Positions 39,906 to 43,510 of a stretch of DNA of 64,000 nt are shown here, piece by piece. Within the stretch, counting starts at the first letter, position 1. Each line of letters starts with the position of its first letter. A program made the translations under genes and the position numbers. This stretch comes from Diphasiastrum complanatum (lineage: Eukaryota; Streptophyta; Lycopodiopsida; Lycopodiales; Lycopodiaceae): assembly GCA_029204225.1 (NCBI GenBank), contig CM055102.1, positions 8,510,280 to 8,574,279 on the forward strand. The letters run 5' to 3'. The notes beneath the pieces are model-generated. The model searched no databases. It was not told the DNA's origin and saw nothing but the letters and a program-made list of their open reading frames with translations.

Positions 39906-40490
39906 CTCCAATCCATTAGAGGAGTTCTCAATATCAAAAAGACCTTTTAAGAAATGCCATGTTGGATATACAAAAATATCAAAATAAATAAAACAATATT
40001 GTTTATTTGCTTGCCCACACCACTCCCAAGGCCTCCCCAACTCCCAATGATCTAACCACAGTGTCTATAGTCACAGTTAAGAACTGTTAATAGTTCGCAG
40101 TATAACTTGACTAAATTCAAAAATATTTCCTCCATTGGTTACAAAAAGGACAATATTTTCACTGGATCTAGAATATGACCGCCATCCCCAAATTTGAATC
40201 AGGAAAAATTGCAAAATGTTTACATATGCATTCCTTCCACGAGAATGGAAATATGAGCGCCAACTACCTATTGGAATGAAAAAATGAGCGACATTTTCAA
40301 ATTTGAATCAAGCATACAAGCACAGAGATTGGATTGATTGTACATAGTATATAATATAATCAAAGATGAGTATTTTGTTTTGCTTCATAGAATCTGGTCA
40401 TAGTACTTTGATGTAACTGATTACTCTATTATTTTATTGATGATGACATTATATCATCTACATGTGGATATCCCTGTTGATTTGGCACCT
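39906..40490. other. Unassigned flank with spaced near-repeats
   Basis: Three related words, GAATATGACCGCCATC, GAAATATGAGCGCCAAC and AAAAAATGAGCGACATT, occur at about 40168, 40248 and 40279. The first and third are followed by CAAATTTGAATCA. This is just upstream of the transposase-like relic and could belong to its terminal region. Confidence 0.4.
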
Positions 40491-41058
40491 TTGCAGAGAA
40501 GAGGAGGCAAAGGAGTTCAAATATCTGTTGAAGATCGTTCTCGTTGCAGGGCAGAAGGAAAGAAAAACGTGGATTTGTGGACAGATGGAACATTATATCC
40601 ACAAGAAGCACTTTGACACATCTCACATTCTCTTCAATAACTCATTTAGTTACATGGATATGCAATGGGCATAGTGGATTACTAGGATATTGTGAAAGAT
40701 TGCAAAACCATGAAAAACAACTTTATATGAATGAAATTCACTTTTTAGAAGGTGAGTTAATTCGGATATCCTCTTACTGTCAGAATAGAGATTGTCATCT
40801 CCAAAAGACGTTAGAAAAAAATGAACAACTTAAAAAAAATAATGAATCATTACAGAAGATAGCAATCAATATCAAATCAGAACTAGAGCAAATGCAATTA
40901 GTCTTACAGTCTATTTGTATTGAAAACTTACAATTATTGAAGGATGTGGATTTGGTAAAGAAGAAGGCTGAAAGTAAGAAGCGAAAGCGACAAAGTTGCA
41001 AGGATATTCAAACGCTTTCAAAAGGAGGTTATCGAAATAGAAGGATCCGTGCATTCAA

Positions 41059-41152
41059 GTAAGCATATTCTAAATTTTGTAAGTTTTTCAATGACATTTG
41101 GATTTAATTTCGGCTATGGTGATATTCTATTAACTATCTATTTTTTTTGCAG
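41059..41152 (+). other. Intron 1 of the transposase-like relic
   Basis: GTAAGCATATTC ... TTTTTTTTGCAG, 94 bp, with a TTAAC branch-like word and a polypyrimidine tract. Confidence 0.75.
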
Positions 41153-41822
41153 ATCTGCATTAGTAGCTCCTCGGAATATTAAAGACAATGCTTCACTAGG
41201 AATGTCATTGGGCACAATATTGACTTGCAAATCCACTGAGCGTATCATGATGAACAATAGGATTTCAAATGTAAAATGTAAAATAGCAGAGTCTTTGATG
41301 GTGGACATTCAAAATATTTTAGATAAGACTATAGTTCAGGGTGCTTATGATTTTGCAGGTATTAGTAGGGAAGCATATGCAACAATATTTAAACTAATTA
41401 GAGAAGCTTTTAAGCAAGTTCAAATTAGAAAAGTCCCAATCCCTAGAACATACCACTTGAAGAAAGAGAGAGATACATTAAACATAGGTATGCGTAAGAT
41501 CACCGGAACTCCATTTCATATTGAGGAAGTGTATGAAATTGATGGAAGATCGATATTCTATAATTCATCAAACAATTTATTTGTTGATCTAAATTAATTG
41601 CTGAGATACATCGTCACATTCTATGATATAACCTATGAAAAGGTGAATGGCAAAATAATCATAGTACTTAAGTTAGATGAGTCAGAAATTGTGAAAGGGC
41701 AGAAGATGGAAAGAGTTAGTATAACTCTCATGAATGGTGCTCTATCCCAAACAGAGAACCAAGAAGATTTCAAATTCAGTGTCCAGTCATAAAATGATAC
41801 ATGGTGGTTGGCAGCGTTTCAG

Positions 41823-41903
41823 GTAACTAGCCTCATTATTACATTACATTCATTGAATAGTATTAATACATTGTAAACTAAGTATGATAAATTCTTTGGA
41901 CAG
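41823..41903 (+). other. Intron 2 of the transposase-like relic
   Basis: GTAACTAGCC ... TTTGGACAG, 81 bp, phase 0 between AAFQ and VLKED. Confidence 0.72.
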
Positions 41904-42705
41904 GTGCTGAAAGAGGATCATGATATATTATCATGGATATTCTCAAGGACATCTTATCCGAGGATCATCAAGGACCATATGGATGGAGGATTTCTCAATG
42001 TTCTAGGAGTTGGAGACTTCAATGTTGAATGACACTTAGCAGGTGATTTGAAAACATTGAAATGTATGTATAATGTCTTTCACCCTTGTTTGTACTGCAT
42101 GAAAATGGCAAAAGATGTAACTAGGAGTACAAGAATTACTAGAGAATATGCAGATCCAAATTGGAAGCCTGTGCTGCCCATTTTCTTAAAAAATGTGCAT
42201 GTTTGCACTCTTCGTGCAGAAGTTAGATTAATAGAAAAGATCATTTATCTTCATATAGTTTTTGCTTGGAATACTAAGCCAACATCATTAGCAAAGGAAG
42301 CTATCTCTCGATTAGAAGATGTTTTTATCAAAAGCAGGACTCCATAAAGGACATGTCAAAATTCAAAAACATGAAAAGCTTTCAGGAAAGAATGGGAACA
42401 TGCCAACTAAGCCAAGCATAGGTGGAGCAAAAGCACGTCGTTTTCTATCAAATCATAATGGTAAGGCTTTTAATATTCAACACTCAGTCTGGACAGATAT
42501 TATTGCTGCCACTCAAGACTTCGAGAAAGACGGCAAAACCAGAGTACTAAAAGTTGATGTATGGAAAAAGCTTGATAGTATGATTGCTATTTTAAGAAAA
42601 GAAAAATACTCTGATATTGATAAGAAAGCTGTCCAAAGGACTTGTGTCGAGTTTGTTAATGCAATATCAAAAGCATGGGGAGAAGATCTCATCACTCATT
42701 ACATG

Positions 42706-42794
42706 GTTAGTATAAAATTTTCAAAATGCTTTCAAATTTTCATATATATTTAGATCTAAACATAAGACTAACATTATGATTTTGACATATGCAG
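42706..42794 (+). other. Intron 3 of the transposase-like relic
   Basis: GTTAGTATAA ... ACATATGCAG, 89 bp, with an ACTAAC branch-like word about 25 bases before the acceptor; joins HYM to HILRDRT in frame. Confidence 0.7.
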
Positions 42795-42949
42795 CACATA
42801 CTAAGAGATCGTACAATATTATTTGCAATACATATCACAAGGGATGGAGAAGTCACACTGGCAAGCACGAGCAACATTTCATCAAAATACACAACATGGA
42901 GGAACCAATGAAAAACGAAACTACGCTATCAGTCATCTCTGCATTAGGG

Positions 42950-43510
42950 CGTGATGTCCTTCGAGAGAAGAAGGATGTAATCTGAGACTGTGTGTCAGGA
43001 TAGGTATGCTGAGCTGTTTGACATAGGTCCTGACGTAGGAGGGACATCTCACGTATCATAAGTGCCACACATCGGGGGTCCTGATATGAGACAAGGGACC
43101 GTAGTGTAACTGGTGTATGACGAAAAAGGCAATGATATTGCCCTCTGATCTCATAGTAGACTGGACATGTGAATAGGAAATGCTCCTCTGATGCGACCAT
43201 GGATAATGAGCATAACTGGCAAAGACGCTCCTCCCATGGGATACCCTGGAAGCGCCCAGTCTCAATTGCCAATTGGTGCGAAGACACTTGGAACTGGCCT
43301 AGCAGAAACCTAAGCCCATGAGATAGTCCTGAGGTGAGATAATGTGGCAAAACTAGAAATCTCACTGTGTCTAGCTCCAGAAAGTGTCCTGTAATAGTCG
43401 GGTTTGACCCTGAGTTGTCCCTGCCATGTCCGACTCAAATATGCTCTATAGAGAAAGCGTCTGATATACTCATGGATGCCCGATGGTGGTTCTTTTTTTG
43501 TACCACCAAA
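42950..43510 (-). pseudogene. LINE reverse transcriptase C-terminus, minus strand
   Basis: The minus-strand reading near 43480-43380 is a RRFLYRAYLSRTWQGQLRV-type linker. After a frameshift, an open frame from 43365 has FLLGQFQVSSHQLAIETG, IPWEERLCQLC, EEHFLFTCPVYYEIRGQY and further helices. A C-x2-C followed by H-x4-C after a (L/I)..E.G...IP.EER segment is the zinc-finger region at the end of many non-LTR retrotransposon RT proteins. Only the 3' end is present, as usual for 5'-truncated LINEs. Its end touches the transposase-like relic near 42950. No poly-A is visible. Confidence 0.7.

What the first reader, a model, noticed from the sequence alone, without database searches (positions are those of the whole stretch)
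40497..42945. Multi-exon transposase-like gene relic of no recognised family
Seen: four exons linked by three short GT-AG introns with frame kept across each join. There is a coiled-coil start, acidic blocks (VLKLDES, HLAGDLKTL), a CLYC pair, HVCTLRAE and a long helical tail, with three stops and one frameshift. Known: DNA transposase genes often combine spaced acidic catalytic residues with Cys/His pairs and have introns, unlike retrocopies. Inference: a decayed DDE-type transposase or a domesticated derivative, perhaps of an undescribed superfamily. The near-repeats at 40168-40290 could be part of its end.
Basis: partly seen in the sequence, partly recalled or inferred. Interest (0 to 1): 0.8.

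Follow-up and report, generated by a model that had tools for sequence, protein, structure and literature searches.

The report
Dead copy of RAG1-like plant transposon
The stretch is one decayed copy of a very abundant jumping gene, apparently of a plant, whose cutting enzyme is predicted to fold like RAG1, the enzyme that rearranges our antibody genes, and whose fuller copies also carry a histone H3-like gene, a combination we did not find described.

Summary
Window 40443-42924 holds a broken four-exon transposase gene inside a larger DNA transposon whose left end lies at 39914. Elsewhere in the same genome one copy runs 9.45 kb between 35-bp terminal inverted repeats (5'-CATTAGAGG...CCTCTAATG-3'). 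A 30-base piece of the repeat (up to 2 mismatches) occurs at 2,046 places; the reversed control at 0.

Three protein searches fetched 127 sequences, nearly all of one family that Pfam does not recognise; the only organism named is the fern Adiantum nelumboides. AlphaFold2 models of two members resemble RAG1: all Foldseek PDB hits at E <= 0.001 (7 of 7, 8 of 8) are RAG1, BbRAGL or HzTransib. Two Asp, a CxxC pair, H-x4-H and the final Glu keep RAG1's order and near-identical spacing.

CA..TG ends and the C(2)C/H(4)H motif place it with the CACTA-Mirage-Chapaev-Transib group. It fails tested defining features of Transib and CACTA; Lanisha, a named but unavailable lineage, cannot be excluded. Fuller copies also encode a histone H3-like protein followed by a weakly supported Ulp1-type protease piece; an Adiantum protein joins pieces of all three. 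Target duplication is unsettled (1 of 4 copies).

The parts
39914..39948 (+). left terminal inverted repeat of the transposon, 35 bp, 5'-CATTAGAGGAGTTCTCAATATC...
   Evidence: sharp left border shared with 11 of 19 fetched copies; 97% identical over 35 bp, inverted, to the right end of copy L011x; CA at 25 of 26 sampled ends
40163..40310 (+). subterminal near-repeats (three imperfect 39-bp units, 62-74% to the first), inside the element between terminal repeat and gene
   Evidence: left subterminal region of copy L022 more self-similar than 10 shuffles of two-base blocks (41 overlapping 12-mer pairs vs mean 8.8, max 16); the right side is not (32 vs mean 24.5, max 33), and left and right share no more than shuffles do
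40443..41058 (+). transposase exon 1 (N-terminal part and coiled coil), frame broken; start codon inferred
   Evidence: homologous to P0013, P0012, P0007, P0002 N-termini
41059..41152 (+). intron 1 (GT-AG, 94 bp)
41153..41822 (+). transposase exon 2; first catalytic Asp of KLDES at 41676-41678; two premature stops (41595, 41790)
41823..41903 (+). intron 2 (GT-AG, 81 bp)
41904..42705 (+). transposase exon 3; second catalytic Asp (GDLK) 42045-42047, CxxC 42087-42098, HxCxxH motif from 42198; premature stop 42030 and a frame break
42706..42794 (+). intron 3 (GT-AG, 89 bp); position conserved in homologues (ITHYM | HIL)
42795..42924 (+). start of transposase exon 4: H-x4-H region (damaged) and catalytic Glu of GMEKSH at 42847-42849; the element breaks off here and the remaining ~6.4 kb is nowhere in the window
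42925..43434 (-). foreign DNA beyond the break, with a minus-strand ORF (42853-43434) faintly like the zinc finger of reverse transcriptases; not part of the element
   Evidence: zf-RVT E 0.14, below cut-off

Best explanation
The stretch is a dead, right-truncated copy of a high-copy cut-and-paste DNA transposon, apparently of a plant. Its four-exon gene encoded a DDE transposase with the RAG1/Transib-type RNase H-like core: Asp, Asp, Glu triad, a CxxC + H-x4-H zinc clamp between the second Asp and the Glu, and a long N-terminal coiled coil. Shown: gene anatomy, family, predicted fold, element ends, copy number, histone-like cargo. Inferred: the transposase pairs the two ends, cuts next to the CATTAGAGG repeats with two metal ions and inserts the element elsewhere. 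Also inferred: the accessory histone H3-like protein with its probable SUMO-protease (Ulp1) tail helps the element against host chromatin silencing or in choosing targets. The lineage belongs with the CACTA-Mirage-Chapaev-Transib group but fails tested membership features of both Transib and CACTA.
Against: Sequence alone does not link the family to RAG1: a profile search of PDB gave only a coiled coil, hhalign against one RAG1 sequence gave probability 0.1 on its percent scale, and among the 25 families shown of 28 matched by the 18 members of A3 none is a transposase model. Most profile members lack the last exon. Model confidence is moderate (mean pLDDT 71 and 68, pTM 0.58 and 0.53), Foldseek TM-scores are low (0.16-0.52 over both models) and rmsd high (9.5-19.7 in Foldseek, 4.5-9.7 in VIA-align for these chains). 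I know of no solved CACTA, Mirage, Chapaev or Plavaka transposase (recalled), so the fold cannot choose within the group. Only 1 of 4 both-ended copies shows a target duplication (3 bp). The Ulp1 match is below Pfam's cut-off. No copy was seen to move.
Confidence: 0.88

Rival explanations
1. The element is a member of Lanisha, the cut-and-paste lineage proposed in 2020 and placed by Kojima (2025) in the same group; then the transposase lineage is not new and only the histone/Ulp1 cargo, if unreported, is.
For: Kojima (PMC12730594, section 16 read) says that Lanisha resembles EnSpm and shares the C(2)C and H(3-4)H motifs, which this family has. The proposers (reference list) work, as I recall, on a moss.
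Against: No named moss protein appears among the listed hits of three searches, but those name almost nothing. No Lanisha sequence or description was available: of 20 papers listed (23 hold the word) one is about transposons, to judge from titles, and the moss genome paper that I looked for is not held.
Confidence: 0.3
2. A diverged CACTA/EnSpm element: ends CATTA resemble CACTA, one copy has a 3-bp duplication, and an Ulp1-like piece is carried.
For: Ends 5'-CATTAG; TCA duplication in one copy; CAC..GTG ends and 3-bp duplications are given as consistent with EnSpm in PMC12730594 (passage).
Against: No transposase model among the 25 Pfam families shown of 28 for 18 members at E <= 10; the ends read CAT, not CAC; the duplication is in 1 of 4 copies only.
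Confidence: 0.15
3. A true plant Transib/RAG1-like element, sister to the RAG1 lineage.
For: The only solved structures that it resembles strongly are RAG1, BbRAGL and HzTransib.
Against: The ends lack the CACAGTG-like heptamer recalled for Transib and RAG targets; 0 of 4 both-ended copies has a 5-bp duplication; no profile similarity to RAG1 was found. Other members of the group are not among the matched structures, so the match does not single out Transib.
Confidence: 0.15
4. A domesticated, host-serving gene or ordinary plant gene family.
For: Multi-exon anatomy; named homologous gene models in Adiantum.
Against: 2,046 element ends, copies 91-100% alike over 801 bp, rare substitutions evenly spread over codon positions in the transposase exons, broken reading frames here.
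Confidence: 0.02

Closest known systems
RAG1 / RAG1-like (BbRAGL) and Transib transposases
   Same: Predicted fold, with about 380-490 residues aligned to the solved chains; order and spacing of Asp, Asp, CxxC, H-x4-H, Glu.
   Different: No detectable sequence-profile similarity; ends CATTAGAGG instead of a CAC heptamer (recalled); no 5-bp duplication in 4 copies; apparently a plant host; four-exon gene; no kelch (RAG2-type) match among the element ORFs scanned.
[quoted passage not shown]
   Same: C(2)C and H(3-4)H between second Asp and Glu; CA..TG ends.
   Different: No Pfam transposase model among those shown; duplication length unsettled.
Lanisha (Repbase Reports 2020; seen only as a citation and in section 16 and passages of PMC12730594)
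   Same: Said to share the C(2)C and H(3-4)H motifs.
   Different: Cannot tell: no sequence, ends or duplication length at hand.
Plant elements carrying Ulp1 (Kaonashi/Vandal MULEs; passages of PMC13317346)
   Same: A SUMO-protease-type domain carried as cargo; here only weakly supported.
   Different: Here next to a histone H3-like domain and carried by a RAG1-fold transposon; the main text of that review has 0 occurrences of histone.

Membership tests
CMCT group (CACTA-Mirage-Chapaev-Transib) | RNase H-like DDE core | tested here: met
   two AlphaFold2 models, Foldseek and VIA-align; prediction, not a solved structure
CMCT group (CACTA-Mirage-Chapaev-Transib) | C(2)C and H(3-4)H between second Asp and Glu | tested here: met
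   each Cys in 113 of 115 rows; first His in only 2 of 82 rows because 80 read into the intron, but H-x4-H in P0012, P0013 and in 17 of 19 own-genome stretches
CMCT group (CACTA-Mirage-Chapaev-Transib) | 5'-CA..TG-3' ends (most members) | tested here: met
   CA at 25 of 26 ends on contig C1; 7 of 10 in the first copies compared
CMCT group (CACTA-Mirage-Chapaev-Transib) | target duplication of 2 to 5 bp | tested here: inconclusive
   1 of 4 both-ended copies, 3 bp TCA; 0 of 18 further copies had a partner end in the expected stretch
Transib / RAG1 | fold of the catalytic core | tested here: met
Transib / RAG1 | sequence-profile homology to RAG1/Transib | tested here: inconclusive
   none; hhalign probability 0.1 (percent scale) against one RAG1 sequence typed mostly from memory; most members of the profile lack the last exon
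Transib / RAG1 | ends beginning with a CACAGTG-like heptamer (recalled) | tested here: not met
   ends CATTAGAGG
Transib / RAG1 | 5-bp target duplication (recalled) | tested here: inconclusive
   0 of 4, few copies
CACTA/EnSpm | TNP2-type transposase recognised by Pfam (model name recalled) | tested here: not met
   18 members scanned, 28 families matched at E <= 10, none of the 25 shown is a transposase
CACTA/EnSpm | 5'-CAC..GTG-3' ends | tested here: not met
   CAT..ATG
CACTA/EnSpm | 3-bp target duplication | tested here: inconclusive
   1 of 4 copies
Lanisha | transposase similarity, ends, duplication | not testable with these tools
   no sequence or paper held
Cut-and-paste DNA transposon with terminal inverted repeats | matching inverted repeats at both ends, many copies, empty sites | tested here: met
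   both ends in L027x and three copies on C1; 2,046 places; comparison with related host sequence fits limits CA..TG for one left and one right junction, the others being less clean

The most novel reading that the evidence does not exclude
A new lineage of RAG1-fold transposons living in ferns and related plants that carries its own histone H3 variant fused to a SUMO protease. The element would thus bring a chromatin component of its own, for example to mark its DNA, resist SUMO-dependent silencing or steer insertion, and it would widen the known range of RAG1's relatives to land plants.
Probability: 0.4. Interest if true: 0.9.

Novelty: new variant of a known kind. Interest (0 to 1): 0.78.

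Why it matters
The RAG1 core is held to have evolved from Transib transposases (start of the abstract of PMC4411706, seen in a listing); Transib elements are, as I recall, known mainly from animals. A family with the same predicted core, about two thousand ends in one genome and a named fern homologue gives a new outgroup for asking how the RAG1 core, its zinc clamp and its end recognition evolved. A transposon that encodes a histone H3-like domain next to a SUMO-protease-like piece was not seen in the listings of my searches of the held library; it would make transposon-borne chromatin components testable. It would also let annotators recognise a repeat family that the Pfam scans here did not see.

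Tried and rejected
Helitron was considered because the left end read backwards looks like CTAA|T with no obvious duplication; rejected when the inverted repeat at the right end was found. A right end at A 10050, at B 10775 or at B 11553 was considered in turn and rejected as longer copies kept matching. A TA or AT duplication within ATTA..TAAT was considered and dropped when CA preceded TTAG at 25 of 26 ends. A viral origin was checked: 62 stretches of viral contigs matched a peptide pattern, none encoded a relative. The minus-strand ORFs gave no Pfam match above cut-off. Sequence-level linking to RAG1 failed. Partner ends for 18 single ends were looked for 9.0-9.65 kb away: 0 of 18 found; one loose match there was not a terminal repeat. 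A scan with TSA in front of the end gave 75 places and one facing pair, the copy already known, so it adds nothing on duplications. Subterminal repeats shared by both ends were looked for and not found above shuffles. In the codon-position test the exon 3 piece was dropped from the sums because the copy used has a frame break in it. In the residue counts P0024 and P0041-P0043 were dropped as fusions.

Full report
What is there. The window stretch 40443-42924 contains a four-exon gene relic. The three introns are 94, 81 and 89 bp with GT-AG borders, and the frame is kept over each join. There are three premature stops (41595, 41790, 42030) and at least three frame-shifting lesions. Of 19 other fetched copies (L010-L028), 11 match the window from 39912-39915 on, and in 18 the match ends at 42921-42925. 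The rest of the element is nowhere else in the window.

A real family. A search with the read-through relic gave 27 proteins with E <= 1, a search with P0013 gave 28 with E <= 10, and an alignment search gave 138 with E <= 10, of which 120 were listed. Together 127 sequences were fetched. Of nine proteins scanned one matches a Pfam model above its cut-off, an Adiantum gene model with DUF7794; for the 18 members of A3, 28 families were matched at E <= 10 and none of the 25 shown is a transposase. The only named organism is Adiantum nelumboides, a fern (P0024, P0041-P0043); that the window itself is from a plant is inferred. Two homologues, P0012 and P0013, run without a break across all three intron positions, as spliced sequence would.

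High copy number. In the window's own genome (1.74 Gb) the 801-bp query gave 3292 first-look candidates; the 40 that were scored, the window among them, are 91-100% identical. One near-identical copy on a small contig (99.7% over 9.8 kb) is probably the other haplotype.

The element. Comparing copies gave a sharp left border and, after several false stops, the right border: an inverted copy of the left end in L011x, L015 and L027x. The ends share 35 bp starting 5'-CATTAGAGGAGTTCTCAATATCAAAAAGACCC. The dinucleotide before TTAG is CA in 7 of 10 independent insertions among the first copies (AA 2, TA 1) and in 25 of 26 ends sampled on contig C1. A 30-base pattern of this end with up to 2 mismatches occurs 1003 times forward and 1043 times reverse; the reversed control occurs 0 times. 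Facing pairs on C1 define elements of about 8.1, 9.45 and 2.6 kb; L027x measures 7.4 kb. Comparison with related host sequence that lacks the insertion fits element limits at CA and TG for one left and one right junction; the other comparisons there were less clean. Of four both-ended copies one shows a 3-bp duplication (TCA) and three show none, so the duplication is unsettled. For 18 single ends, 0 partners were found 9.0-9.65 kb away, so full-length copies are a minority.

Against the link to RAG1: no sequence-profile evidence, moderate model confidence, low TM-scores (0.16-0.52) and high rmsd. Kojima (PMC12730594; section 16 read, other passages by find) unites EnSpm/CACTA, Mirage, Chapaev, Transib, Plavaka, ESTA, Lanisha and RAG1 by this C(2)C/H(3-4)H motif, and gives CA..TG ends for most and duplications of 2 to 5 bp. 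The family therefore works like, and probably belongs to, that wide group; which branch it joins is open. It fails the CAC-type ends of CACTA and the recalled heptamer of Transib. Lanisha could not be tested.

Cargo. Downstream of the transposase the fuller copies carry a plus-strand ORF whose first 130 residues are histone H3-like (Pfam Histone 5.4e-25; PDB histone H3 7.1e-20, centromeric H3 2.5e-19), followed by a long tail and, some 350-390 bp further on, a piece with a QxxDSxxCG stretch like that of Ulp1/C48 proteases (Pfam C48 E 0.012, 15.9 bits against a cut-off of 20.7). In Adiantum P0041 a transposase piece, a histone piece (6e-9) and a C48-like piece (0.067, below cut-off) stand in one predicted protein, 42% identical over 60 residues to the histone part here. 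That histone and protease form one protein in the window's genome is inferred. Minus-strand ORF groups of unknown kind complete the element. Rare substitutions among copies are even over codon positions in three transposase exon pieces (86, 91, 72; shared ones 8, 0, 6) but favour third positions in the histone ORF (110, 87, 159; shared 1, 3, 4), suggesting past selection on the latter between lineages of copies (exon 3 left out of the sums, its phase being broken in the copy used).

How it likely works. Shown: ends, copies, gene structure, predicted fold, histone-like cargo. Inferred: a transposase dimer binds the CATTAGAGG repeats, cuts with the two-metal DDE site and pastes the element; old copies such as this one then decay. 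The histone-protease protein may loosen or mark chromatin, or remove SUMO used in silencing; this is a guess without test.

Literature. Searches for RAG1-like or Transib elements in plants, for transposons encoding histones and for new transposon lineages in ferns or lycophytes and for Lanisha were seen as listings with the starts of abstracts; none of the listed titles describes this element. A 2026 review of gene capture by plant elements (PMC13317346, passages) names Ulp1 and has 0 occurrences of histone in its main text. PMC12868710 (passages) gave nothing of use. The library lacks most subscription journals, and Repbase Reports was not seen, so an earlier description is possible.

Noticed in passing
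L025:713-1705 (minus strand); L022:8132-9127: Histone H3-like ORF inside the transposon, with one extra residue in loop 1 against canonical H3 and some CENH3-like residues (recalled), then a probable Ulp1/C48 protease piece.
   Followed up: partly
L022:6585-7364 (minus strand); L030:8352-9632 (plus strand of the contig): Further ORF groups of the element without a Pfam match above cut-off; the first has a CPYC pair.
   Followed up: partly
window 42853-43434 (minus strand): ORF next to the break, with a faint zf-RVT match (E 0.14, below cut-off), possibly the end of a LINE that joins the truncated transposon.
   Followed up: partly
L009 (G000:C304:25661-35460): 99.7% identical to 9.8 kb of the window around the relic, probably the other haplotype on an unplaced contig.
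   Followed up: no
L046/L047 and L058/L059 on contig C1: Pairs of ends with the same 14 flanking bases shown, in opposite orientation, 32 kb and 481 kb apart, suggesting inverted segmental duplications.
   Followed up: no
L019, L021 (contig C14, about 279 kb apart): Left ends with only 12 bp of terminal repeat joined to internal sequence, with identical 300-bp flanks: an internal deletion derivative in duplicated DNA.
   Followed up: no
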